The position numbers and the translations under genes are program-made. This document shows positions 18,451-59,307 of a DNA stretch of 64,000 bases, piece by piece; the stretch's first letter is position 1; each line of letters starts with the position of its first letter. Under the pieces are notes generated by a model that worked only from the letters and a program-made list of their open reading frames with translations, was not told where the DNA came from and searched no databases. Origin of the DNA: Polychytrium aggregatum (Eukaryota; Chytridiomycota; Chytridiomycetes; Polychytriales); assembly GCF_025602895.1 (NCBI RefSeq), contig NW_026516298.1, forward strand, positions 1-64,000. Direction: 5' to 3'.

Positions 18451-19130
18451 AGACCCACTCCTCCTCCCCCCTTTCCCCTCGTTAGACATGGTTGCAGCGA
18501 GTATCAGGGCTCGATGAGAAGCGTGGCCGGGAGCGTTTGGCTTTGGCACTGTCCGTCTGGACGCTCTTGCCTGGGTGTAAAGTAGCATGTGGCACTTTCT
18601 GGAGTTGCAGGGACTCGCTGTCATCGCGAGCCGAAATACATATTCTCGACATCTTCCATCCCACCCGAATGCACCAGCCAGGCCGCTGAGGGAGAGCAGC
18701 ATGAGGCGAGTCCAACGAAAAACAGGATACCCGGCTCTCCAGATCAACGACCAAAAGATTTGCTGCCCCCCAAGACACCGCATTGGCCTTGTTGGACGTA
18801 GGCCTCCAAGGCCGCATGCACAATCGAGATGGGTCAGTTGGGTCGAGCTCTTTCAGCGCCGTCAGGTTGCTCCCCCCCATCGATGCGTCTGCATTGCTGC
18901 AATTCATGGCGCCGGCACCACCGAAAAACCGAACCCTGCCAGCGTGACACAGATTGGCCCCAGACCCGCCTGGCGCGCAGCCAGCCGTGCTGAGAAATCT
19001 GCCCTTCCCGCCTTGTGGCCCGTCCGACACTGCCTGTTCTTCGCCTCTTGCCACTCGTTCCCCACTCGTTCCCCACCCGCCCGCCCGCCTCCCGACCCGT
19101 CTCTGCAATCGATCGGCCACTGGAGCAGCG
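18451..19130. other. intergenic region SERCA / Asteroid-type gene
   Basis: 680 bp between two genes in tandem. It should hold the SERCA 3' UTR and the promoter of the next gene. Just before the ATG is a C-rich stretch with a repeated CCCACTCGTTCC unit (19055-19076). No gene seen. Confidence 0.5.
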
Positions 19131-21218
19131 ATGGGAGTCAAGTTGCTGACCTCGTATCTCAGGGACTATGGGGAGAATCACAACATCCTCAATCCCACTC
19201 TGGTCTCTGGGCGGCTCCTCCTCGTCGATGCAGGCTCCCTCAAGCGAATGTTCGCGGTTGTAACGCCAGCACTGCCCTCCGAGTACCGCATCAACCAAAC
19301 CACGATGGGGCAGTACCACGAGCTGCGTGATCGCATTGTGGTGTTTTTCCAGAAGATGCTCGATGCCGGGCTCTCGGTGGTGCTCTTCAGTAACTGCGAG
19401 CTGCGAGCAAAGCATGACGAAGAGTGGGTCTACAAGCCAGCCCAGTTCCCGTGGACCAACAGCAGCGCTCGAGGCGGCAACTATCCTCACCACTACCAGC
19501 AGCAGCAGCAGCAGCAGAATCATCATCATAACCATCACCGGGACCAGCATCCGCAGCATCAGCAGCAGCGATCGGCTCAAGGCGGCCCCGAAGACGAGAA
19601 CCAGTTCCACTCCGTAGTCAACATCCGCACGTTCCTCGAGAGCGTCGCCCTGGAGCATCTCAAGCCACCCACGCCCGACAGCTTCAAACTCCACCGCTGC
19701 AAGACCGATCTCATCAAGGAGATGGCTCGGTACGCCCAAGACGTTGCGCCCAGATCCCAGTTGCTCGGCATCATGAGTTCAAACTCCGAGTTTGGCATCT
19801 ACTGCTCGATCCTGAACACCTCGTGGTACCGCACCCCGGAGGAGTTCCCGCAAGAGTTGCTATCGATGTCCCAGCCGCTCGACCAGCGTCGGCTGACGGC
19901 CATGTGTCTGACCCCGCTCGGCTTCCGCAATGCCTACGGAAGTCTTCACGGCAACGCTCGACTCCTCGCTCTTCTCGCCGTCATGAGCAGCAACGACTAT
20001 GTTGACTATGACAGCGCCAAGGCGATCCGAATGCAGGTGTTTGAAGGGCGAGCCAATTACAAGATCCCCCATACAATCGCCTATCTATCAAGACTCGATC
20101 ACCGCAGCGACCCTGTCGAGGTTGTGTTCAAGTGTCTTCCCGATAAGGACCCCACCAACCGCCGACTGAAACAGCTCATGATCGAGGGCATGATCCCATA
20201 CAATCTCAACAAGCCGGCAACAATCTCGCGCGAGGTGAAGGAGAAGCTGAACGAGAACATCCCTGCCGCCCTTCATCCTGTCTTTATCGAAAGCAAGGTC
20301 GGTCGGACCGTCATGTCGATCGGAGTCTTCCGCCGCCTCTGCATGGATCTCACGGGCGAGATCGACCACAGGGGCGTCAGTAGCTGGGACATTGTCTCGC
20401 CTCTCTTCCAGCGAATCTACTGGGTGGTCGTCGGACAGGGAGCCCTCTTGAACGAGCTCATTCGAGTGGAAGCCCCTGTCCGAAAGGTCGTCAAGATATT
20501 CGATATAGACGACTTGATGACGATGGAGGAGCTGCTCCAGAAGGACAGGGCCGCGCGAATCATGAATGTGTGTCGCATCTGCGACCCCGACGATGCCCCG
20601 TTCCTGTATCAAGCTCTGTTTTCGGACGAGTCTGTCTTTTCGCCCACGCTAACTCAGAAGCAGACCTCGACGCTCCAGCTGGTGACGCTGACCTTGTACG
20701 TGCTCATCAAGGCGACACAGAGCCGAACGCCATTTACAGCGTTCGATATCGACGTTCTCCTCTTGTGTATCCTGGTGGAGCTCTTTGAGGAGGCCCGTGT
20801 GGAACTCCTGGAGGCCCATGGCGATCTCGCCGGCGATCCTCTCACCTGGCGCGGCCTGGGCCCTTGCTACCGGATGCCAAGTCTCGACGAGCTTTGCGGC
20901 GAGCTCAAGTTTGTGTCCACTTTCTGGTTTCGGATGCAGTCAGCCGTGCTGGTTGCGACCGATGCCTGCTTCCGCCCACTCGATGTCACCTCCATCATTG
21001 GCTGCTACGATGGCTACGGGCTCCATCTGCTGTACAGGCGATTCGAGGGCGCCAAGTTGAAGCCGCTGGGCTTGGATGGACCGCAGTCGCATTTTTGCGA
21101 TATGGTGGAGGAGTTGCTCGCGCCTGGTTCTCCGTGCAAGTCAGTCTTGATGGACAGCTACAACTCTGTCATGAGCGTTGTATCGGAAGCCAAGAAGAGG
21201 CTCGAAGCCGCAGAATAG
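19131..21218 (+). CDS. Asteroid-type XPG/FEN1-like PIN-fold protein, degenerate active site
   Basis: Single exon of 695 aa starting MGVKLLTSYLRDYGENHN, the typical N-terminus of the Asteroid/ASTE1 branch of XPG-like nucleases. Further matches are 'LLLVDAGSLKRMF', 'SQLLGIMSSNSEFGIY' and 'LAVMSSNDYVDYD'. In active relatives the last two carry an Asp pair (SSDSDF) and GNDY; here they read SSNSEF and SNDY, and the acidic ExDxD-type helix reads 'CKTDLIKEMARYA'. Several metal ligands are therefore replaced. A Gln/His-rich insertion (about residues 120-150) separates the two halves of the PIN region. The C-terminal 400 residues are helical and unassigned. The ATG has good context (GCAGCGATGGGAG); the open frame runs further 5' but without family similarity. 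Family assignment is fairly sure; catalytic activity is doubtful. Confidence 0.75.
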   Translation: MGVKLLTSYLRDYGENHNILNPTLVSGRLLLVDAGSLKRMFAVVTPALPSEYRINQTTMGQYHELRDRIVVFFQKMLDAGLSVVLFSNCELRAKHDEEWVYKPAQFPWTNSSARGGNYPHHYQQQQQQQNHHHNHHRDQHPQHQQQRSAQGGPEDENQFHSVVNIRTFLESVALEHLKPPTPDSFKLHRCKTDLIKEMARYAQDVAPRSQLLGIMSSNSEFGIYCSILNTSWYRTPEEFPQELLSMSQPLDQRRLTAMCLTPLGFRNAYGSLHGNARLLALLAVMSSNDYVDYDSAKAIRMQVFEGRANYKIPHTIAYLSRLDHRSDPVEVVFKCLPDKDPTNRRLKQLMIEGMIPYNLNKPATISREVKEKLNENIPAALHPVFIESKVGRTVMSIGVFRRLCMDLTGEIDHRGVSSWDIVSPLFQRIYWVVVGQGALLNELIRVEAPVRKVVKIFDIDDLMTMEELLQKDRAARIMNVCRICDPDDAPFLYQALFSDESVFSPTLTQKQTSTLQLVTLTLYVLIKATQSRTPFTAFDIDVLLLCILVELFEEARVELLEAHGDLAGDPLTWRGLGPCYRMPSLDELCGELKFVSTFWFRMQSAVLVATDACFRPLDVTSIIGCYDGYGLHLLYRRFEGAKLKPLGLDGPQSHFCDMVEELLAPGSPCKSVLMDSYNSVMSVVSEAKKRLEAAE

Positions 21219-21401: not shown

Positions 21402-21475
21402 GCTCCTATGGCGCAATTGGCTAGCGCGTTCGGCTGTTAACCGGAAGGTTGGTGGTTCGAGCCCACCTAGGAGCG
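21402..21475 (+). tRNA. tRNA-Asn (GTT)
   Basis: Full cloverleaf. Acceptor GCTCCTA (21402-21408) pairs with TAGGAGC (21468-21474), with discriminator G at 21475. D arm is GCGC/GCGC, anticodon stem TTCGG/CCGGA around loop CTGTTAA with anticodon GTT, variable AGGTT, and T arm GGTGG-TTCGAGC-CCACC. No intron. A run of seven T at 21480-21486 is the Pol III terminator. Confidence 0.97.
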
Positions 21476-21723: not shown

Positions 21724-24700
21724 CTATGAGCTCGACGCCGTGCGTCGCCGGGGCCGTGCCGAATAATCGTTGTACGAATCGGACTCGCTGGTCTGTCGGA
21801 AGAAGACTCGATCAGCAACTCGTGGCACACTCACAAGGGTGTGTACCCATCGCATCCACAATGACCTGCTCGATCACCAATTTGCTCATACACGGCTGCC
21901 CAGCATAGCTGCCATCACTCGAACAGCAGCCCCTCACATGTCGATCGGCAAGATCATCCCTGCACTCACCGAATCACCCGCAGGGGCACCGTAAGCAGAG
22001 CCTGGGGTCAGGAGCCCGTACTTTTGAAGATACTCAAGGGTCGCGGCAGAGAAGGGCTCGTGATCGTCGCTGTCATCATCGTCGTCGTCCGACTCGGAGT
22101 ATAGCCGTCGAGTTCGGACAGAGGGCACCGTGGCCATCGGGGCGTCCCCTGCTGAAACCACCGCGTTGGATCCATTTTGGATGGATGCAGTTCTATCCTC
22201 GTTCATGGGCTGAAATCAAGCATCCAGCCGTCCACCAGATGAGTCGACATGATCGATGATCGGTGGTTATCGCGGCAAGGGAGCCGGGCCATGCTTGCGA
22301 TCCCACGCTCATGAGGCCACAAACCACTTGTCCCAATACTCTGCCAGTCGACCCGGTCCACCGAGCACCCGCAGCTCCTCTTCATTTGTGCTTCCCGCCC
22401 AGCGCTGCATCTTGCCATGGCTCACCTTTCCCTGAGCCTGTGCGCCTTCTGGCTTGTCACAGACAAAGATAAAGCTTTCCTCTGGATGGCTTGCTAGTCC
22501 AGCGATGATATCCCTGGCATCCATCGACGGGTCCAGCGCCAGCGACTTCGAATGGAACCGCGTCCCACCGTCGACATCTCGTTCGGAGGCTGCTTCGCGG
22601 GCCAAGTCAGTTTGCTGCTGTTGTCGTGCCCCACGGCCGTTGGTGCCCAGGAGCGGGCTTGGGACGTGTCCCGGAGAAGGTGTCTCCGAGATTGTCTCAA
22701 AGCTCGAGTCAAGTTGCTCAAAGTCGTCCGGCTCGAGATCGGCTTCGGGCACGATGGCCTCGTGGCGGCCCTTGGCTTGCAGGTCAGCAGGCACGGTTCG
22801 GATGATGTGGGAAAGATCCTGGAACTGGTCCTGGGTCTTGTCGATGACAGCAGAGCTGGTGTTGTTGCCAGAAAACCTTGTTTCGGAAAGGTGAAGGTCT
22901 GCTGGAGTGTCCTTGGAGGTGGATGATTTGAGATGGGCCGGCTGGTCATGTATGTCGTCGATCCCCCAAAACGGGCGATAGTTGCTTCCGGTGTCGGGTG
23001 GGAGTGTGAAACCGCCATGCTTGCCTCGTACATGATCAAAGATCTGCAACCTCTCCGTCGGTGCAATCACAAGGCCGGCATCGCCCTCGGTGGTGTAGCC
23101 GAGTCTCTGCTCAGACCCACGATCCTGCGGCGGCTTGTCATCCGTCCGTGCTCCCGGTGGCGGCTGGGCGGGCCCGCTTTGGCCACTCCGGCTGGTCACA
23201 GCATCCTCGGGTAGACGTCCATCGGTTGCTCCGGCTACAGCTGTCGCTTCAAAAACCAGGCTTGTGTTTGTCCCTACTGTGCACCTTGACTCGGCAGGAG
23301 GCGGCCGTGGAGTCGGAGGGACGGAGGCTGGCATCATGCCATACGCCGTGCCGATCGGTGAAACGCTTGGGATCGCGCCTGGCAGTCCAGAGAGCCCAAT
23401 GCCGAAGCCGGGCATCCCAGGCATCCCGGAACCGATGCCGGGGATTCCAGCGCCAAGTCCCGGCATCGTCATCAGGGACAGCTGCGACCGGATAATATCC
23501 ATTTGCTGCTGGAGATAAGCAATGTACATCTGTTGCTGGAGCAGCACGGCTTCATTGGCTGCCGTCGCAGGCGGAGGAAGATCGGTGCGAGCTGCTGCAG
23601 ATGCCGTTCCCTTGGGTGTGATATCGATCGAGTCCAGATGACCAGACGCATCTGTTGCGACGTGGACGGTCCTGTGATCCAGTCTCTGGTCGTCTTGACC
23701 GGCGCTGCGATCCATTGATGATTCTCTGTTATCTCGACGGCCTGGACTGGAGGAGCCGTCCTTCACTTGCGTTGAGCCGTGTGCATCTGGCGTCGCAAAT
23801 GCCGCCGACCTTCCTCGACTTGCAGTTGTTTCAGATGATTGATCGGGTGAGTCTGATGCACCAACCAGTGCATTTGAGGTCAAGACAGGCTCGACGGCGA
23901 CCGGTGATGGCGGTCCAAGATTACTGCAGCGACAGGTAGAGTTTAGTTTGTGCGCGAGCTGATTCACTCTCCCGCTCCAACACACACAAACTGCATTACT
24001 CAGACAAATGCTCGTGCTCACATCTGGAACATGTCTCGGATGGCCTCGACAAAGCCAGGCTCCGAGGCCGGAAGAATCGGATTGACTTCCATCACGCAGT
24101 GCTGGGATTGCTCCTCCATTGAGTCGATTTCGATTTGAATGTCGCCTCCATAGGGGCGGAAAGGCGGCTGGGTGTCGTTGATCTGCAGGTGCACCAAGCG
24201 TTATCGATGTATGCAAGCGCCAAGGCGCCAATCCAGCAAGCAAGCAGCGAGGAGATAGTCAAACAAGCACAACCACACAAGCAACCGAGCAACCAGAGAG
24301 TCTCCGTCGAACCGATTCCGTGTCAACGATCGATACAGCCCGGGCCAAGGATTTTGCGGCCAAAGTCAATCGTCAAAATCAAACCCACCTGGTAGACGCA
24401 CTCATAGAACTTGGGCAAGCAAAACCTTGTGCCACTAGGCCGCTTTTCGAATGACACGATCAACATGATTGGGCGACCGGTCTCCATGAACCTCAAGCTC
24501 GTGTTCTTGATGAAGTGAATACAGTGCTGGTAGATTTGGTGGCTGTCTATCGGGATTTGGTTGATCCAGCTGTATCATGATGATAAACAAAAACATCAGC
24601 TGGAGAGACATGGTACGTGTGCAGATATCCAGCGCATAGCGGCGATGCATCGCGAATGCACCCAGTGGATGGCACGCCGGGTCGAGCCAAGCAATGAAGG

Positions 24701-26484
24701 TATTCGGTCTTACATGCCAACAAGCGGCATGCTGCCGAGTTTCGGATCGCTCATGCTGAGCGGGAGCACTTGGCGGGCCTGGTCGATTGTGACATAGCTG
24801 CACATGCGGGCCGAAGAGCCGGTTAGTGCCAAGACCAGTACATCGCAGCCAAGAGCGCAACAAGTAACTTGGCCGAGATCGAGTCAGTACCCAAACGATA
24901 GTTCGTCCGACTGCTCCCCGGAAGTCAAACGAGATGTCAATGTTGTAGGGACCAGTCGGAGGGCATAGATGGGCATGAGGCGAAAGTTGACGACCGGGAG
25001 CAGCAGACGGACTGTGGTTCGCGAGAACAATTTGTCAAGTCAGCAGGGAGAGAGGACTCAATGACCGCAGCGCCACAGACAGAGTCGATATAAGCAACCG
25101 GGCATTCGGACTGAAAGCATCTGGTGGGTTCGCCAAATGATCGATACGCAATCACAGCAAGGATACTCGCCGGCCGGCCAGCCGGCTGGGACTCGCAAGT
25201 CGCAGAGCTCAGCGATCCACGCACGCTGGTGGCTTACACGACAAGTGAAGTATCTCGTCTCGAACATTGACGCAGTGAATCAGGCTTGGAACTAATCCGC
25301 TCAGGGCTGGGCCAGGTTCGGGCTGGTGGACCGAGGTTTCAAAGAGCTGATCGAGAACACATCCGCATCAGTGCCTGACGATATTGCTGACCGTCGTCCG
25401 ACCTATCGTCCAATGCGGACGTCCGTCTTCTCCATCAAGCGGCGATAACAAGTGGGGTGCATACCTTCAGGAGAAAATAGTATTCATTGGCCCCGACGAC
25501 CCGGAGGTGATCAACTGCCGATCCGGCGCATTCGCCCCGGGTGACCTTGACAACAATATCGTCGCGCAGGACCATGCTGGGCACAATGAAGCTGTCTTGG
25601 CCGTTCCAGATCCTCTTCCCAGCGTCGAAGCGGTCCAGAAGCAGGATCGAGTTTGGGGCATCTTGCAGGTAGTCCGAGACTGTGCGCCCGATCAGAAACC
25701 CGAGCTCCCCTTGGACACCAAAGAAGCGGGCTTTGAGGCTCTGGATCGACGGTGCGTGCACACGAACAGACTCCGGCACCAGCCCGATTCGAGAAAGATC
25801 CAGCGGTGGTCCGATCGGAGTGCTATCCCACAGGAAGTACTTGGGTGCGGCCGGGGGAACAAAGACGTATTCGGGCTGGGGAGGTGACGATCTTGGGTGA
25901 CGATGTCTGCTGCCCAGACTCGACCGAAAATCACTCTCCGGCGGAGCCACCGGTCCCGGTGCCGACCCATACCCCGAGACCAGAGGATCGAATTTGCTTG
26001 TTGTCCGCTGATTCTGGTCCGGGTCGGCCTCGTCGCTGGCTGTTCGCAGTCGAGAGCGGCTTTGTGCTGGCCGGGCGAAGCGCAGGGCCTCGTCCTCGCG
26101 GATATTGTGGACGAGCCGCTCGGCCGGATCGTGCTCGGGACTTTGGCTGCGGGGTTTGTAGTTCATCGGTGATGCGGGACGCACTCGAATCCGGCCATTT
26201 TCGAGGCCCTGCAGCCTCCCTCCGAACTGGTTGGCGTGAATATGCGTCGCCATCTGCGCAAAGGGCGAGTCGCTGGCAGTCGACATTGGCCCAAAGGACT
26301 CGGGTTCGTTTCGAGCTCGAGCGAGGCCGGCACGGACGTGCGATGGCCCAGAACTTGAGGCGGCATTGCGGCTCTCGGGCTCAGAGGGTTGGAGTCTATG
26401 GTTGCCCTTTGGCGAGACCGGGGCACCCCTGAGTCTCGGAATGCGGGAGGAGTAGGCTCGCGGAGCGGCTGCCTGGTCAGCCAT
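21724..26484 (-). CDS. STIL: STIL homologue, centriole-duplication factor
   Basis: STIL (Ana2/SAS-5) links PLK4 to SAS-6 in cartwheel assembly. Nine exons: 26484-25465, 25346-25238, 25011-24891, 24797-24714, 24569-24389, 24182-24022, 23923-22426, 22209-21970 and 21792-21724. All are in phase, giving 1160 aa, similar to animal STIL. The N-terminal STIL domain is recognisable: 'KYFLWDSTPIGPPLDLS', 'ILLLDRFDAGKR', 'GYVTIDQARQVLPLSMSDPK' joined to 'LGSMPLVGIWINQIPIDS', and 'LPKFYECVYQ'. A Gln-rich coiled coil at about residues 680-705 (EAVLLQQQMYIAYLQQQMD) lies where animal STIL has its oligomerising coil. Near the C-terminus, after an acidic run, 'SAATLEYLQKYGLL' matches the conserved C-terminal motif of STIL. 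The central part is disordered and Pro/Ser-rich. The exon 7 donor (GTGAGC at 22425) was chosen over read-through to a stop at 22309. A canonical STAN motif was not identified. Confidence 0.88.
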
Positions 26485-30663: not shown

Positions 30664-32202
30664 TTAAGCAAGCAGACGGGCAATGTCAGCCTCGGAGTTG
30701 ATGATATAGGGGGTGGTGATGGTGACGCCCTTCAGGCGCTCGAGACCCTCGCCAGCGTAGGTGACGAGAGGAGAGATCTCGAGAACGGGGATGTCGTTCT
30801 GGTCCTGCTTCTCGCCCTTGACAACCTTGGCACCGGCAGCGGTAGCGAATCGGACAGTCTGGTTCAGGATGTCGGCACGGGAAGTCTCGGGACTGTCGTC
30901 CTTGGAGCCGGGGGCATTCTTGAGGGGCGAGAACTCCTCCTTGCGGGCAACCTCGAAGACAGCAAAGTGCTGGGTGAAGGGGAAAACATCAAAGATGAAG
31001 AGCTCGAGCTTGACGCCGTTGGGGGTGGTGGGGCTCTGGGACTCGCCAGAAGCCAGGTCGACGTGCTTGATCTTCTTCTTGGCAATGTGGAAGTCGAGCT
31101 CGGCTTCGATGTACTCGACGCGCTTCAGGAACTCGGTGGTGTAGTAGTGGTTGGCGATGTTGCCGGCGTTGTAGACAAGGGTGCCGTCGGGCTTGGTGAG
31201 CTCGGCGTAGGACTTTGGGATCTCGGAGTACTCGACGACGCCGGGCTTGCCGTTTCGCAGCGAGATGACACCGACGGACTCGTGGGCATGGGCCTTGGGA
31301 ACCGACTTGGCGCCGCAATCGGCGTTCTTGGAGGCGCAATAGCCAATGAAGATGGGATCGGCAACCTTGACGAGGCAGTTGTCGACACAGTAGGCGTGGA
31401 CGTGGGGGATGCCGCGGCGCTCGAGATCGGCAATGACGCCCTCGTTGCGGAGGGCGGCGTAGATGCCGCCGTTTCCGTCAGGGGCGACAGCGGGGGTGTA
31501 CTTGTTCTCGAGGAAGATCTTGCCGTCAAAGGTGAAGGCAGGCAGGACACCCTGGTTGAAGAAGAAGACGTTCTCCTTCTTCAGGCCAAAGTAGTTGTTG
31601 CTGACAAAATACTGCTCGGTCGCGGCGCGGGTGGGGCCCGAGGTCATGACGTACCAGGGGACAATGACCTCCTTGCCGTCGGCCTTGGATTTATGGGCGG
31701 CAGCAATCTCCTGGATGCGGAGGATGCGCTGCGCCTGGAGCTCAAAGAGCGACTTTTTGGAGGGCAGGTTGATGTCGTAGCAGCCCTTGGGGGCAGAGGA
31801 GCCCAGACGAGTACCCTGGCCACCCGCCAGCAGGATAACGGCGACCTTGCCGTCGGCAATGAGCTGCAGACCAAGATCTCGCCAGTGATCGAGCTTTTCC
31901 TTGGAGGCCGACAGGGTCGAGTCGACGGCATCGGCGGGGAGGGGGTCGATCTTGGGATGCTGTTCCTCGGGCTTGCCGTAGGTGCGCTTGAAGATGGCAT
32001 TAGCGCGCTCGACGTCGATGACCTTGAGGTTTTCGATCAGCAGAGCCTTCTCGCTGTCGGTCAGCGAGGACCAGTATGTGAAGAGGTGGCCCTGACCGGC
32101 AGCATCGAAGCGGGCCTTGAGGGTCGCGTACTGTTCTTCGAGGGAGGGCATTGCAACGGGCGAAAAGAGTTTCTGGAACGACTGGACGAAGGTAGAGAAC
32201 AT
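30664..32202 (-). CDS. UAP1: UDP-N-acetylglucosamine pyrophosphorylase
   Basis: Makes UDP-GlcNAc from UTP and GlcNAc-1-phosphate in the cytosol, the precursor for chitin, N-glycans and GPI anchors. Single exon of 512 aa. The nucleotide-binding signature 'ILLAGGQGTRLGSSAPKGCY' is near residue 122, followed by 'MTSGPTRAATEQYF', 'FFNQGVLPAF', 'PDGNGGIYAAL' and 'HVHAYCVDNCLVKVADPIFI'. The substrate-loop region reads 'VGVISLRNGKPGVVEYSEIP', and the C-terminus carries 'PLVTYAGEGLE'. Length and motifs are typical of eukaryotic UAP1. A second in-frame ATG at 32151 (MPSLEEQ) would give 495 aa and may be the true start, since the first 17 residues are not conserved. Unlike most neighbours it has no introns. 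Confidence 0.95.
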   Translation of the reverse strand: MFSTFVQSFQKLFSPVAMPSLEEQYATLKARFDAAGQGHLFTYWSSLTDSEKALLIENLKVIDVERANAIFKRTYGKPEEQHPKIDPLPADAVDSTLSASKEKLDHWRDLGLQLIADGKVAVILLAGGQGTRLGSSAPKGCYDINLPSKKSLFELQAQRILRIQEIAAAHKSKADGKEVIVPWYVMTSGPTRAATEQYFVSNNYFGLKKENVFFFNQGVLPAFTFDGKIFLENKYTPAVAPDGNGGIYAALRNEGVIADLERRGIPHVHAYCVDNCLVKVADPIFIGYCASKNADCGAKSVPKAHAHESVGVISLRNGKPGVVEYSEIPKSYAELTKPDGTLVYNAGNIANHYYTTEFLKRVEYIEAELDFHIAKKKIKHVDLASGESQSPTTPNGVKLELFIFDVFPFTQHFAVFEVARKEEFSPLKNAPGSKDDSPETSRADILNQTVRFATAAGAKVVKGEKQDQNDIPVLEISPLVTYAGEGLERLKGVTITTPYIINSEADIARLLA

Positions 32203-32470
32203 GGCAAGGGTATTTAAGCGTCGGGCGCGTCGGGAGAAAAAGGGCGGGCAAAGGCGATGGATGGCCGACGAAGGCGACGGAAATGGGGGGGGGGACGGGA
32301 TGCGACGAGCGGAATGGGGAGGAGGGAGACGGGACCGGGTCGGGACGGCACTTATAGGGGAGGCGGAGGCGGACCGGGGCGGGGGGTGGAGGTGACGGGC
32401 AGACGAGGGCAAACAGCGCCGAGACAGCACAGCACACCGAAAGCACCGACAAGGCCCGTGCGAGACGCAA

Positions 32471-32590
32471 GGCAGCAATCCCACAAGCAATCCCACAGGC
32501 AATCCCACAGGCAAATCGACAAGCAAATCGACAAGCAAGTCCACAAGCAAGTCCACAAGAAGGCAGACAAGCAAGCCCAGGCAAGTCGGG
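32471..32590. repeat. 12-bp degenerate tandem repeat
   Basis: About ten units of the types CAATCCCACAAG, CAAATCGACAAG and CAAGTCCACAAG, 270-390 bp upstream of the UAP1 start codon. Confidence 0.85.
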
Positions 32591-33197
32591 CGGCTGCGCG
32601 GGCGGATACACACCGGTGGAGGAGCGGACGGCGATTGTAAGGCGAGTTTAACGGCGGCGGCGGTGCTGATAGTGTCGATAGTGCTGATGGCGGTGTGGAT
32701 GGTGCTGATGGTGCTGATGGCGGTGCTATCGCTGACGGCGGTGTCGATCGATCGATATCGCTGATGCAGTGCGGATGATGATGATGGACGAATGGATGGG
32801 TGAATGAATGGATGGAGAGGACGAAATGTATCGCCCCGCGTTGGGAACGTGGGAATGGCGAGAGCGCTTCTCGCTGCAGCGAGACGGAGCGAGACGGGGC
32901 GAGACGGGGCGGGCGCTGTCGGCGGCGGTGCGGCGGTCCCAATCGGGAAGGCCGTTGTTGCTGTCCGGCGGGGTGGGGCTGCGCTGGGACTGCTGCGGGG
33001 CGCCACCGGTGTTGTTGGTGTGGAGCCTGTGGAGTGTGGCAGGGCGCTGTGGCGTGCTGCGGGAGTGGCGTGTGCTGCCATCCGCCGCCAATCAGAGCCG
33101 CTGGCTGCCACCAATCAGAGTTGCGGCCCATTCCGAACAGGGGTCTTCTCGGCAAGCCGCCGAGAGCACACCGAGAGTACACCGAGACCGCAGCGAG

Positions 33198-46988: not shown

Positions 46989-49900
46989 TCACAGGAGATT
47001 ACGGCTCTTGCACCGCAGGGCATACGTACAGACGCTGGGATGAGACTTGACTGCCTCTCCGGAGCGGTCAAACAGCTCCTGAGGTGGTATCAGTGCTCCG
47101 AGGGCACGCCTCATGTTCTTGGTGAGGTACGTTTGCCCAACCTGATTGTCAGTTGATCAGAGGAGGCAATGATCATTGCCGGTTCGGTGATTAGTGCACA
47201 TCCATATCACAACCGCGCTCTATCGTGTGCTTTGGCAGAGTTGAGATCGAGTGCTTACCTGGTAGCTGGCATTCATCCACCCAAATCCCTCACGAACCAC
47301 AAACTTGAAGTCCGCGCCGACGTTGCCGTATTCGACGTTGACTTTGTGGGTCATGTTGACAATGTCAAACTTCTCCGGGACAACGCCGTTAAAGTCGACA
47401 AAACTCTTGGTGATCGTATACAGCCAGCGGTAGGCAATCCGTCGTGCCTCCGGCATGAAGCCATAGTTCTTGAGGCCCTCCCAGGCGATCATCTGGTGGG
47501 GAGCCCAGCCAAAGGGAAAGTCCCACTGGCGGTTTGGTCGGGACAGTCCAATCGCACCCCGCGATAGTTCCGTGCCCGACACTAGGCCACCGGTCACTTC
47601 AAAGTGGCTCAGGGCCACAGGAACCATCTGCTTGGCCTGCTGGGCGGTGGCCAGACCCGACCACAGAGCCCAGAGGGTCGTGCATGTCTCGTAGGTGGAC
47701 TGCTCGCCGCGCTTGCAGTCCCAGTCAAAGAACATCTTCTCTTTTGGGTTCCAAAGGTACTTGTGCACCTGGTGCTGCGTTCGCTGGGCAAGCTGTCGGA
47801 AGAGCTGCGCCGGGATCGTCAATTCGACATAGTCGGCCCCCTTGATCGTCTTGATCTTTGGGGTGAATGAATTGATCTCGGTGAATCTGTCGCCAAATGA
47901 GGGCTTGTGCTTGACGCCGGCCGAACGGCTCCCGTTCGTCGTAGACGTGGGTGTGGACGTGGGTGTGGACGAGGAGGACTCATCATTGTCATAGACCATG
48001 ATGCCCTTGGCCCACCGTGTGTTCCAGACATTGCCCTCGTCGCCACCGAGCATGCTGTCGATTCCCTCAGTCTTGAGGAGCATGACCCAGACCTTGAGCC
48101 CGTTCAAGTAAGCATCCTCGGGCCCGCGACGGACCTTCACCGTGAAGCTAAGACCGGGATGCGTGTGTTTGCAATGGTTGAAACGCCAGAGTCCGCAATC
48201 GTGGGGATTGGGGATTGGGGACATGGGACATATGCAGCGTGGGAACAAGGCAAACATTGCCGTTTGGTAAGTACACTGAGGTGATCTTTGACCGTTGTAG
48301 CGGGCAGCATAAGGCGAGTGAGCGACATTGGCAGTCCACAACGAACCTTCCACCACAATGCTTGGCGATCAGGTCGTAGAGATCTGTCTCGTATTTGTAC
48401 AACAAGCTGTTCAAGTCGATGGTTGCCAGACTTGCACACCGGCCTTCGAAGCGGTACGTGGTATCATGGCCGCTTTCTCGAACTGTATTCATGGGCGGCC
48501 CAGAGAAGCTGTTGGTCAATACTATGAACGCACTTTGTCGTCGAGATTTGATGATGATCGCGGCAGCCGCCCGTGATCCAAGCCCAACGACCTGCGGGCA
48601 AACACTTGCCTGCGCGATCATGGATAAAGTACTCGTCCAGTTCGGGCTCCTTGATGTGGCCCGAAGAGTACATTCGCTTGATGTGCTCCATGTCTTCGGG
48701 AACGTCTGGATCCAGTCCGTGCTTCTTGCAGTACGGCGCAAGGATGTGATCAAAGTGCGAGCTCTCTGTCTCGGGGGGCATGCCGATACCCTCGGGGTGG
48801 TACTTGACCAGACCGGTAGCTTCGTCCAGACGCGGAGGAGCCAGCCACACACTGAAGAGCTCCTTGATACTGGCGCGGATACCGTTGTGCATCCAAGACT
48901 GCCGGCGAGCGGGGCCCCACTCGGGTTTGTTGCTGAGGGCGGCATAGACCTGGATGATCATGTCCGTCAAGAACGGTGGCTGTGATCTCGTCAGATAGTA
49001 GGAGCGGTTGGCGTTGAGGATCTTGCCGTAGTGCTCGATCTCGTAGCAAAAGTTCTCGACCATGCCGCGGGCCAGCTCAGTACGGCCGTCGACGAGTAGG
49101 CCCAGGGCCTCAAAGTAGCTGTCCCAGCCGTACATCTCGTTGAAGCGGCCACCGGGCACGACAAAAGGGGTTCCACGGATGGTCTTCTTATGTGTGGCGT
49201 GGTCGGTTGTTTCGCGCAGACCAAGCGAGAGAATACCGGGGTGGTGGTTGAGGGTCTTGACGTATTGAGGTGTGATGATCTCAGGGAGACGAACCACATC
49301 CAAGCGCAAGTGGGGGCGGTCCTTGGCAACCTGAGCGTAGTACTCCAAGGCAAGTTGGTCGTGATACGGGACAAAGACACGGTTGCGTTGGTCAGGTCCG
49401 CGGTTCTTGGAGTCGGCACAGATTGCCTCTAGACCTTTGAATAGAGCATGGCACATCGACCCGTGGTTATTCAGGAGGTCGCATGTTGGCCATGACTCGC
49501 GACACATGAGTCTGTGCGCTGAAATTGGCACGGGTTATATGGGTCATGATGGCAACTGGTGTTGCGCAGCCCAAAGACCAAAAGGGCCGGAAAGCAAACT
49601 AGTCGAGATACTATACCATCGGCATCGATGCGGCGGGTCAAACTGTCCCAAAAATGGTACTTGATAAGGCGGCTAAGTCGATCGACAGGGTTCTCGCTCA
49701 GGCGGTCCTCGTTGATGACGATGAGTCTGCGGCCGTAATCGGCGGCAATGGCAAGCTCCTGGAGCAGATTCGACAGCATATAGGTGCCGCGGATCTCGTA
49801 TTTCTTGAAGCCATTCGAGTTGGCTGTTCCGACCGGGAAGCTCTTGGGACCCTTGTCGAAGACGGTGATCTGGAAATCTCCATCGGTGTCTTCCTGGTGG

Positions 49901-54566: not shown

Positions 54567-57500
54567 TTATTGCTCCACATTTGCAAGCTTGCCATATCTG
54601 TTGCCCTGCAGCCAGCCCCTTGCGCGGCTGATCCAGCTCAGGTTCCTCCATCCGCCTTGGTGCTGGTTGCTGCGGCCCGAGGGCTTGGTGCGGCGTCGAG
54701 CCGGCATGTCGTCTTGAGGCACCAGGACGGGCTTGGTTGGCACCATGGGAATGCCTCCTGGAATCAGCTGGTTCTCGTCGTCGTCGTCGTCATCGTCGAG
54801 GCCATCTTCCTCACCGTCACCAAAGGCGCTGTTCAGGGTCATGATTTCTTCATCCTCTTCCTCGATGGGCTCGTCGTGCGAGACAACGTTGCCCTCGCGG
54901 TCGAATCGTGGTCGGCGGTATCGCTTCAGCAGCAGCGACGAGATCACGACGCTCACCGACGACAGCGACATGGCCATGCCCGCGACCATCGGGTGCAGCG
55001 GGGGCCCGTCTGCGAATCAAAAGTAGCAAGCGAAGCGAGAAGGCGAGTCAGCAGCCAGCCACGATTTGCTCCGTTATGCGATCCAGCTGGGCCTCCAGCC
55101 GTAATTCAAGCTACCATCCTTGAGTATCGGACAGAGAAACCAGGGGCGACAGCTGCAGCTGAGCTACTTACGGAAGGGGAGGGTTACGCCCATAGCCCAG
55201 GGGATCATCAGGATGTTGCTAGAAGCAATAGCGCTGCAGTTAGAACGGTTGCGTACGGCGCCTCGCACTGCTAGAGATACTCCTGGGCGCACCCACCAGC
55301 ATCGGCGTATTTCTGTGCTGGGCTGATACTCACTAGATCGTTGCCCACAAAAAGTTAACCTTGATGCGCTTGAAGATGACCCGGCCCAGGTCCAGGGCCG
55401 TCACAACATCTGTCAGGTCCGGGCGCATCAGCACAATGCTGGCGGCCTCCAGAGCCACATCTGTTCCGCCATAGACGGCAATGCCGAGGTCGGCCTGGGC
55501 CAAACTTGCAGAGTCATTCACACCGTCGCCAACCATGGCGACGACAAACCCGTCCTGTGTCTGGAACTTCTCGACAATGTTCTTCTTGCCAGCTGGGGAG
55601 ATGCCCGCGTGGACCTCGGTGATGCCGCATTCGCGCGCAATGACGTTGGCCGTCAAGGCCTGGTCGCCCGTTACCATGGCCACCTGGATCCCCATCTTCT
55701 GCAGCGCCTTGACCGCCGTGATGGCCTCGGGGCGGACTGCATCCGAGAGCGCCACGAGACCCGTCAGCCGGTCGTCGAACGACACAAAGACGACCGTCCG
55801 GCCCATGCCTTCGTGGTACTCCATGCTCTCAATGCTCTCCGGAACCATGGTGATTCCGGATTGGCGCATGAAGGCCTCGTTGCCGATCCGGACGCGGACA
55901 CGCTCCTCGACCGTGCCCTTGACCTTGACAGTGCACTGGATGCCGAGGCCAGGCACGGCCTCCACGTCTTCGATTTCGTGGCTGTTTTGATAGTTGGTGA
56001 TGTGCAGATACTCCTTGCCATGCTGAGCGATCGACTTGCCCACGGGGTGCTCGCTGCCGGACTCGGCTGCTCCAATGATGCCAAAGAACCGCGGATCGCC
56101 CATGAACTTGGACTTGTCGTCCTGGGTCGACATGAAGATACGGTGGGCCACAACACAGAGCTTGCCCCAGGTCAGTGTGCCCGTCTTGTCGAAGATGATC
56201 TTGGTCACTCGGTGAGTGACTTCCAGAGGCCCGCCGCCCTTGATCAGGATGCCGTGGTGCGCACCCACGCCCGTTCCGACCATGACGGCCGTAGGGGTGG
56301 CCAATCCCAGGGCACACGGGCAGGCCACTACGATCACCGAAATCGACAGGTTCAAGGCAATCACCATCGGTGACGAGTTCAGCGGGAAGGCTCCGGGGAC
56401 CCAGTGCATCATGCTCATGCACATGTACCAGAACACGAGCGTCACCACGCCGAGGCCGATGACGACAGGCACAAAGTAGCCCGCCACCTGGTCGGCAATG
56501 TTTTGGATCGGGGCCTTGGAGGTCTGGGCCTGGTTGACCAGCTTGATGATCTGCGACAGAGCCGTGTCGGACCCAACACGGGTTGCTCGGATGTGAAGCA
56601 GGCCCATTCCATTGACCGTGCCGCCGATGACACTGTCGCCGATCTTCTTTCGGATCGGAACGGGCTCGCCCGTAATCAGCGACTCGTCGACGCTCGACTG
56701 TCCAAACTCGATCGTGCCGTCGGTGGGGATGCGCTCGCCCGGGAGGACCTTGAGCGTGTCGCCGACTTGGATGTACTCGTTTGGAATCTCTCGCTCAGAC
56801 CAAACGCCGGTCTTGCTATCCTGGGCGAGGAGGAGAGCATTGCGCGGCGTGAGCGACATGAGCTTGCTGAGGGCGCTGGAGGTCCGGCCTTTGGCCAGAT
56901 TTTCGAGGTACCGGCCCAGCAAAATAAAGGTGATCAGGGTCGTCGACGTTTCGAAAAACACGGGCTCGTCAGGCGTGTTCCGCAGTGCCCCAAAGAACAT
57001 GGACAGCGCGGAATACGCAAAGGCGATCGAGGTGCCCAGGGTAATGAGCACATCCATGGTGTAGGTATTGTGGGAGACGGCCTTGTAGGCCGCCCGGTAG
57101 AATCGCTGGCCAATGCCAAACTGCACCGGGATGGTGAGGATCAGCATCACCAGGTTGCCTGCGCTGCAGCCGAGGATGGGATACTTGATAATCTCCGGCG
57201 TGACCCTGGGCAGCACCATCGAGATGATGGAGACCGGGAGGGCAAAGGCACAGGACCGCCAGAAGGCTCTCCGCCATTCTTGGATTTCCTGGGTGCGCTC
57301 CAGGGACTCGATCTGCGCATTGGTCTCAAAGTCCGCCGTGAGGACGCTGAAACCGAGCTCCTCGATCTTCTCGGCAATGGTGCGCACGCCAACGACACTC
57401 TTGTCAAACTCGACGTGGCCGCTCTGGCCCAGGAGATTGACTGCTATAGACTTGATGCCCGGCAGCTTTGAGATTTCCCGCTCAATCTTTCCGGAGCAGC

Positions 57501-59307
57501 TGGCGCATGTCATTCCAAGGATGCGCAGGTCCACGCTTCCGGCCGCGTTTTGGACAATGATCGTCGCCTCGAAGCCGATTTCATTGATCGCGTCCTCGAC
57601 CACCGATGCAGTGGCAAGACTGGTGTCGAATTTCACCTGTGCGCGCTCCGAGAGCAGCGCAACTCGGCACTCGATGATGCCGGGGAGTAGCTTGAGGTGG
57701 TCCTCGATGCGCATGACGCAGCTGGCGCAGGTCATGCCGCGCACCTGGAGGTTGACCAGCTCCTCGTTGGCCTTGGCATTGGACATGTCGATGACAAAGG
57801 ATTCGTGGAGAGTCGAGGAGCTCGGTGCATGCCGGACGGCAGGGGCTGGCTTTGGGGTCGTCTGTGTTGGTGCCCCAGTCTCCTTGGGCTTGGCCTCAAA
57901 GCCACAGTCCTCGATCGCATCGATGACGGCCTGGGCACTAGTCAAGGAAGAGTCAAGTGTCACCGAGGCGAGGTTGTTCTCGAGCGAGACGATGACTGTC
58001 TGCACGCCCGGGATCTGGGACACCACTGCGGTGATGGTTTGGACGCACGACTACAAATCGAGGTCAACCAACAACGGTAAGGACCCGGCACATCACGCAG
58101 AGAGCGAGATCGGAGCAGCGCCAAGGACGTGGATAGGCAAAGAGGTAGGATGCTGTCAGCACTGGGCCACTATATGTGCATCAGTCGCACTATGCGCACC
58201 AGTCCCACTATATGCGCACCAGTCCGATTATTACGGGCACTGGGCGCAATCGGCCCTCGCAAAATGGGTCGGCGCTGTCTCGGATGTCGATACTGTACCT
58301 GGCATGTCATTCCCTCAACCGATATCTCGGCTGCGATGGTTGCCTGCGAGGCCGCTGCAGGGGTGTGACCTGAGTCGTTGACCAGGCGGGCGTCAAACCC
58401 ACACGACTCGATAGCATCGACAATGTCTTCGGGCGAGCATACATCCGGCATATACTTGATGCGGCCGCGCTCGGATGCCAGGTCAATATCGGCGCTTTGG
58501 ATTTCGGGCTTTGCGAGCAGAATGGATGTGATCGTTTTGACGCACGACTGCGTTGTGGCGGGAGTGAGATTTGGCAAACAGATAGGTCAGGGGAGTATAG
58601 TCGCAACAGGAGCCCGTGCTGCTTTCCAGAAAGGCTGCGAACCGCCGATGCCGCCGACGTTGGCGAGGGCCTGGAGTTGGGCTCTGTTGATGCAGCCGAC
58701 CCAGATAGACTCTTCCGACGTCCAAACGCCTGCCATCAGGCCAACATGGCTCTCGGGGAGGCCGCAGCCACTCTCCACTGCCCCAGGATCGCAAAACGCA
58801 CCTGGCAGGTCATGCCCTCGATGGCGACCACCACCTCGGCGGTCTGAGGGTCGAGTGGCTGCCCTGACTGCGGACGGGAGGCTATAAATCCGCTGTCGTT
58901 GACGGCATCGATGAGCTGGTTGGTGAATGCGTTGGAATCTTGGACCTTGCTACCGTCGAGGGTGACGGTTGCCGAGTGCGAGTCGAGGTCGACCTTGGCC
59001 GCAGCCACGCCGTCGATGGCCAGCAGCGTCCCGGTCACGGACTTGACGCAGGACTGAGACACCGGTCGTCGCACGGCGCCGTGGTCAGCACAGCCCAGTA
59101 ATATGCAGAGGTTAGCCGATCGCATGGTGCCTATGCAGTAGGCGGTCCATGATGTCCAAGCTGGCTGTGTAGCCACGAGCAAGTGCCTGGGTTGGGGAGC
59201 GGAGAGGCGCTCCTCTGTCTCTCTCGCCCGCCTGGCTCTCTGGGCCGAGCAGCACCCACCTGGCAGGTCATGCCCTCGACACTGAGTTTCACCGTTGAGG
59301 CCGACAT
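54567..59307 (-). CDS. CCC2: copper-transporting P1B-type ATPase (Ccc2/ATP7)
   Basis: Moves Cu(I) into the late Golgi for cuproenzymes. Six exons: 59307-59260, 59053-58802, 58547-58299, 58050-55334, 55218-55172 and 55009-54567, in phase, giving 1251 aa. Five N-terminal metal-binding domains are seen. Domains 1-3 have GMTCQSC, each with its CxxC split by an intron; domains 4 and 5 have 'GMTCASC' inside exon 4. Pump motifs: 'LITGEPVPI', the membrane site CPC at about residues 760-762 ('[13 protein letters not shown]'), '[11 protein letters not shown]' with the phosphorylated Asp near 804, '[11 protein letters not shown]' (the HP motif), and '[17 protein letters not shown]'. TM7-8 read '[18 protein letters not shown]' and '[17 protein letters not shown]', restored across two introns. 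The tail has an acidic seven-Asp run. Yeast Ccc2 has two metal domains, human ATP7 six; five is intermediate. Confidence 0.96.

What the first reader, a model, noticed from the sequence alone, without database searches (positions are those of the whole stretch)
21724..26484. Full-length STIL (Ana2/SAS-5) homologue in a fungal genome
STIL is a core centriole-duplication factor studied mainly in animals, where sequence divergence hides distant relatives. Here nine exons rebuild a 1160-residue protein with the N-terminal STIL domain, a Gln-rich central coiled coil and the C-terminal YLQKYGLL-type motif in the same order. A flagellated fungus needs centrioles, so a working copy is plausible. It could show which STIL parts predate the split of animals and fungi.
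Basis: partly seen in the sequence, partly recalled or inferred. Interest (0 to 1): 0.82.

Follow-up and report, generated by a model that had tools for sequence, protein, structure and literature searches.

The report
STIL centriole gene in a fungus
This fungus carries an apparently intact copy of STIL, the protein that starts the building of new centrioles in animal cells, along with its main partners; surveys already pointed to STIL in swimming fungi, but this copy helps to show which of its parts are shared with animals.

Summary
The finding is real. Nine minus-strand exons (26484-21724) join into a 1152-residue frame. The spliced protein matches Pfam STIL_N at E 6e-21, 75.3 bits, cut-off 27, and the Trichoplax STIL domain 5OI9 at E 3.9e-13. 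The C-terminal stretch FSAATLEYLQKYGLL matches the core of the animal STAN (SAS-6-binding) motif; 0 of 5000 shuffles reach its score (human letters recalled). The coiled coil sits in the right order but is weak by sequence. The CPAP-binding motif PRxxPxP and the TIM motif were not found. The genome also holds SAS-6, CPAP and PLK4 with polo boxes 1-3. STIL, SAS-6, CPAP and PLK4 matches each lie on two contigs; for STIL the second is 99.72% identical over 30 kb, so probably the other haplotype. Published surveys already imply STIL in chytrids (PMC6559791, PMC13358043). It is a new member of a known family. Its added value is as an outgroup: the PLK4 groove that binds STIL in humans, reported not conserved in flies, looks kept here, so it may be ancestral.

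The parts
21724..26484 (-). STIL homologue, whole coding region, nine exons, 1152 residues
25465..26484 (-). Exon 1, residues 1-340: about 205 residues before the region handed to the PDB search as the N-terminal domain, then the start of that domain; start codon unproven
25238..25322 (-). Exon 2, N-terminal domain
24891..25011 (-). Exon 3, N-terminal domain
24714..24797 (-). Exon 4, N-terminal domain (GYVTID...SDPKLGSMPLVG)
24389..24569 (-). Exon 5, N-terminal domain; its splice with exon 4 restores PLVGIW, also printed in the Trichoplax sequence
24022..24182 (-). Exon 6, end of the N-terminal domain (Pfam match ends at residue 524)
22426..23923 (-). Exon 7, long middle region with the coiled coil
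23467..23562 (-). Short Gln-rich stretch, residues 672-703, best ungapped match to the human STIL coiled coil of 4YYP (weak)
21970..22209 (-). Exon 8 with an acidic run and the STAN core
22009..22050 (-). STAN core SAATLEYLQKYGLL, residues 1104-1117; S1104 and T1107 stand where human S1116 and T1119 stand
21724..21792 (-). Exon 9, C-terminal tail (least certain exon)

Best explanation
The gene is a STIL/Ana2 orthologue of a flagellated fungus. Most likely it works as in animals: active PLK4 binds the coiled coil through polo box 3 and phosphorylates the C-terminal STAN motif; the phosphorylated STAN motif brings SAS-6 to the mother centriole, so that a cartwheel forms there; CPAP joins through its TCP domain. 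Shown here by sequence: homology of the N-terminal domain and the STAN core, matches for SAS-6, CPAP and PLK4 polo boxes in the same genome, and an open reading frame. Inferred: every binding step, phosphorylation, and the role in centriole duplication.
For: STIL_N E 6e-21, residues 263-524. The spliced domain against all PDB chains: 1 hit at E <= 10, 5OI9, E 3.9e-13, which PMC5928214 describes as Trichoplax STIL NTD. STAN core against recalled human letters: score 42, next best place 14, 0 of 5000 whole-protein and 0 of 5000 local shuffles, 0 of 2000 with gaps; it covers S1116 and T1119, which PMC4220463 found critical for SAS-6 binding. PLK4 PB1 29.6 bits, cut-off 26.4; PB2 50.8 bits, cut-off 26.9. 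PB3, spliced by me from one copy, hits 4 PDB sequences at E <= 10: 3 named PLK4 and 1 named only serine/threonine kinase (1MBY, recalled as mouse Sak/PLK4), E 0.0069-0.0096. The 10 hydrophobic STIL-contact positions named in PMC4530586 are hydrophobic in 10 of 10 cases in the fungal PB3. On the STIL side 4 of 5 hydrophobic contacts stay hydrophobic (L733 I, L736 L, I740 M, L743 I; L744 is R) and Q739 is kept. CPAP TCP domain: E 1.3e-25 to zebrafish CPAP, with 5 of the 17 PDB sequences hit at E <= 1 being CPAP/Sas-4, ranked 1-5; 6 of 8 STIL-contact residues identical. SAS-6_N 100.4 bits with neighbours, cut-off 25. Between the two copies there are 14 differences in 6201 window bases; in the nine-exon model 1 is coding and it is synonymous, P of 1 or fewer of 14 under an even spread 2e-4.
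Against: The coiled-coil match is weak: 762 of 5000 whole-protein and 52 of 5000 local shuffles do as well, 374 of 2000 with gaps, and phmmer with that stretch found 0 PDB sequences at E <= 10. PRxxPxP has 0 matches; the human CR2 stretch aligns no better than to shuffles, 677 of 2000. No TIM motif found. The N-half of STAN around S1061 is not convincing. The groove comparisons had no chance control. In PB3, G922 is K; in CPAP, H1003 is K and Y996 is F. In the eight-exon model 2 of 14 differences would be coding, one of them a frameshift near the end. The PLK4 kinase domain was seen only by eye in the frames, not tested with a profile. No transcript evidence.
Confidence: 0.9

Rival explanations
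1. A protein with a STIL-like N-terminal domain but another job, such as a ciliary or trafficking adaptor that does not load SAS-6.
For: CPAP-binding and TIM motifs not found; coiled coil weak; PMC5928214 notes that the STIL NTD resembles the N-terminal domain of ATG7 (passages).
Against: The STAN core keeps both residues S1116 and T1119. The genome search with the domain listed matches only at this locus and its near-identical copy on C46 (12 matching pieces; such counts are lower bounds).
Confidence: 0.06
2. Contaminating animal DNA in a fungal assembly.
For: STIL is best known from animals.
Against: The gene lies on a 184-kb contig and a near-identical copy on a 965-kb contig, colinear over the 30 kb compared; similarity to animal STIL is distant; the genome has 13 matching pieces of chitin synthase family PF08407, fungal by recall. 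No species tree of genes on this contig was made.
Confidence: 0.01
3. A decaying pseudogene.
For: No transcript data; in the eight-exon model the copies differ by one frameshift near the end.
Against: Open frame over nine exons; in that model no difference between the two copies changes the protein.
Confidence: 0.02

Closest known systems
STIL N-terminal domain of Trichoplax adhaerens (PDB 5OI9)
   Same: Sequence match at E 3.9e-13 over positions 78-296 of the 360 residues searched, including SDPKL and PLVGIW
   Different: The fungal protein has about 205 more residues ahead of the domain if the chosen start codon is right; the first 77 residues searched did not align
Human STIL
   Same: Order of N-terminal domain, short Gln-rich stretch and C-terminal STAN core; positions of S1116 and T1119 kept
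   Different: PRxxPxP and TIM motif not found; coiled coil similar only weakly
STIL of other flagellated fungi
   Same: Surveys imply STIL in chytrids (PMC6559791, part of Results and passages; PMC13358043, passages)
   Different: No such sequence was seen or aligned here; the listings and passages I saw gave no account of their domains

Membership tests
STIL/Ana2 family | STIL_N domain (PF15253) | tested here: met
   E 6e-21, 75.3 bits, cut-off 27
STIL/Ana2 family | C-terminal STAN motif, core with S1116, T1119 and YGLL | tested here: met
   0 of 5000 shuffles. Human letters recalled and not checked in a database; numbered by setting one serine to 1116, they then put S at 1061 and T at 1119 as in PMC4220463
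STIL/Ana2 family | N-half of STAN around S1061 | tested here: inconclusive
   Short query: best at 1013 (ALDPSMDARDIIAGLA), 2811 of 5000 shuffles as good; a second short query 4720 of 5000; the longer query matches best elsewhere, at 768, 123 of 5000
STIL/Ana2 family | Short central coiled coil between N-terminal domain and STAN | tested here: inconclusive
   Best window is in the right place, but 762 of 5000 shuffles do as well, 52 of 5000 local
Metazoan STIL with CPAP-binding CR2 (a metazoan feature, not taken as defining the family) | PRxxPxP | tested here: not met
   0 matches; CR2 alignment 677 of 2000 shuffles
Animal STIL with TIM motif (not taken as defining the family) | C-terminal TIM motif | tested here: not met
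   Best match lies near residue 224, not at the C-terminus, 244 of 2000 shuffles; best scores 11, 6 and -3 in the three downstream minus-strand frames, without a chance control; human letters recalled
STIL/Ana2 family | Role in centriole duplication | not testable with these tools
   Needs an experiment

The most novel reading that the evidence does not exclude
The helix-in-groove contact between PLK4 polo box 3 and the STIL coiled coil, known from humans and reported as apparently not conserved in flies (PMC5374404), is ancestral to animals and fungi: the fungal PB3 has a hydrophobic residue at 10 of 10 groove positions and the fungal coiled coil at 4 of 5. By contrast the STIL groove of CPAP is kept (6 of 8 residues) while its known STIL ligand motif is not found, so the fungal STIL-CPAP link would use another proline-rich site or differ.
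Probability: 0.55. Interest if true: 0.55.

Novelty: new member of a known kind. Interest (0 to 1): 0.45.

Why it matters
Human, fly and worm STIL coiled coils cannot be aligned without ambiguity (PMC5374404, passages), so it has been unclear which STIL contacts are ancient. A fungal copy with its partners is an outgroup: the N-terminal domain and STAN core, and perhaps the PLK4 contact, predate the animal-fungus split, while the CPAP-binding and TIM motifs as known from animals were not found here. Transgenic lines exist for the chytrid Spizellomyces punctatus (PMC7213984, abstract start in the listing), so this can be tested.

Tried and rejected
The unspliced STIL_N search of the genome gave nothing; the domain is spread over exons 1-6. 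Structure prediction of residues 205-340 from a single sequence failed, mean pLDDT 30.6, so no fold search was run. Looser proline motifs at 197, 754-756 and 968 were seen and not claimed. An eight-exon model was built first and replaced after the haplotype comparison. CEP85, an animal partner of the STIL N-terminal domain, was sought through PF24555: best 17.1 bits, cut-off 27.3, and the same search rings, below the cut-off, in 4 of 14 control genomes, so there is no evidence for it. The Tcp10_C search also rings, below the cut-off, in 1 of 14 controls. Not searched: CEP135, CEP152, CEP192, axonemal genes, and the viral, phage, plasmid, E. coli and prokaryote collections. The species was not identified.

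Papers. Listings (capped: 20 of 53, 20 of 44, 20 of 200, 20 of 68, 3 of 3, 15 of 47, 0 of 0, 10 of 61 shown). Passages seen in PMC6070874, PMC6559791 (also part 1 of 4 of Results), PMC12659703, PMC13358043, PMC3776556 (also one section), PMC4530586, PMC5928214, PMC5374404, PMC5746551, PMC4220463, PMC10425847, PMC4113102. Figures are not held, so I did not see the STIL row of Figure 1B in PMC6559791. PMC12659703 has no whole-word STIL in its main text.

Full report
What is there. On the minus strand, nine exons from 26484 to 21724 join into one open frame of 1152 residues. The sites were picked by hand so that each intron runs from GT to AG. In the eight-exon version, the frame used scores best of three by codon usage in 8 of 8 exons; exon 1 was part of the training set. 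The version scanned against Pfam has 1141 residues and is the same up to residue 1130; it matches STIL_N at E 6e-21, 75.3 bits against a cut-off of 27. The spliced domain has one match at E <= 10 among PDB chains, 5OI9, E 3.9e-13, the STIL N-terminal domain of Trichoplax adhaerens according to PMC5928214 (passages). The splice of exons 4 and 5 restores PLVGIW, also printed in the Trichoplax sequence. Without splicing the genome search finds nothing.

The C-terminal motif. FSAATLEYLQKYGLL at 1103-1117 matches the core of the STAN motif. Against the human stretch, which I recalled, the 16-residue window scores 42; the next best place scores 14, and 0 of 5000 shuffles reach it. With one serine of the recalled stretch set to 1116, a serine falls on 1061 and a threonine on 1119, the three sites that PMC4220463 found critical for SAS-6 binding (passages). 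S1116 and T1119 correspond to S1104 and T1107. The other half of STAN, around S1061, is not convincing.

The coiled coil. The best ungapped match to the human coiled coil of 4YYP lies at 672-703, between the two conserved ends as in animals. It is weak: 762 of 5000 whole-protein and 52 of 5000 local shuffles do as well, 374 of 2000 with gaps, and phmmer with that stretch found no PDB sequence. Of the five hydrophobic residues that touch PLK4 in the human complex (PMC4530586, passages), four are hydrophobic here and one is arginine; Q739 is kept.

The partners. The same genome has matches to SAS-6_N, to Tcp10_C, over the cut-off only when neighbouring pieces are added, and to PLK4 polo boxes 1 and 2. 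The kinase part was seen only by eye. From L026, one of the two copies, I joined two exons into polo box 3; at E <= 10 it hits four PDB sequences, three named PLK4 and one named serine/threonine kinase (1MBY, recalled as mouse Sak/PLK4), E 0.0069 to 0.0096. The ten hydrophobic groove positions named in PMC4530586 carry hydrophobic residues in 10 of 10 cases and K943 is kept; G922 is not. No chance control was run for this. In flies the contact appears not to be conserved (PMC5374404, title and passages). The fungal pair suggests, but does not prove, that the human type is the old one.

CPAP. The joined TCP pieces match zebrafish CPAP at E 1.3e-25; of 17 PDB sequences hit at E <= 1 the first five are CPAP or Sas-4, the other twelve include designed proteins and a ribosomal protein. 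Of eight residues that PMC3776556 names at the STIL interface, six are identical, one is Y to F and one H to K (no chance control). Yet the STIL side has no PRxxPxP, and the CR2 stretch aligns no better than chance, 677 of 2000. The groove is kept while the known ligand is not found; another proline-rich site may serve.

Copy number. Matches for STIL, SAS-6, CPAP and PLK4 each lie on two contigs. For STIL, window 6802-36816 is colinear with 30 kb of C46 at 99.72% identity, which reads as the other haplotype; the other pairs were not compared at length. Between 21000 and 27200 the copies differ at 14 places. In the nine-exon model one is coding and it is synonymous; an even spread would give one or none with P 2e-4. 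In the eight-exon model two would be coding, one of them a frameshift near the end. This supports a working gene and, through that indel at 21964, the nine-exon ending; the two points are not independent.

The organism. It is unnamed: 64.7 Mb in 418 contigs. Thirteen matching pieces of chitin synthase family PF08407 (fungal by recall) together with centriole genes point to a flagellated fungus. Axonemal genes were not searched, and the species was not identified.

What is known. PMC6559791 searched for STIL orthologues and states that proteins for centriole biogenesis were not found in fungal genomes except chytrids (Results, part 1). PMC13358043 lists STIL among centriolar proteins lost in Neocallimastigomycota (passages). 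So fungal STIL is already in surveys. Eight library searches showed, in their capped listings, no paper on the domains of a fungal STIL; the library lacks most subscription journals.

Verdict. It is a new member of a known family, of interest as an outgroup that helps to sort ancient STIL contacts from animal ones.

Noticed in passing
6802-36816, against G000:C46: The assembly seems to hold both haplotypes as separate contigs: 30 kb of C46 is 99.72% identical to the window, and matches for four of four centriole genes lie on two contigs each.
   Followed up: partly
18948-21218 +: A single open frame of up to 756 residues beside STIL has no Pfam match and no PDB match at E <= 1; MGVKLLTSYLRDYG recalls XPG-like or Asteroid-type proteins, from memory.
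   Followed up: partly
21402-21475 +: A tRNA-Asn (GTT) gene lies between the 3' end of STIL and the neighbouring open frame.
   Followed up: no
55336-58050 -: P-type ATPase with three heavy-metal-associated domains, probably a copper pump.
   Followed up: no
47223-49534 -: Trehalase, in at least two open stretches.
   Followed up: no
30667-33114 -: UTP-glucose-1-phosphate uridylyltransferase domain in an 816-residue open frame.
   Followed up: no
L026:7241-7416: The PLK4 intron that splits polo box 3 holds a short tandem repeat of nine-base units, about GGTGATGTT.
   Followed up: no
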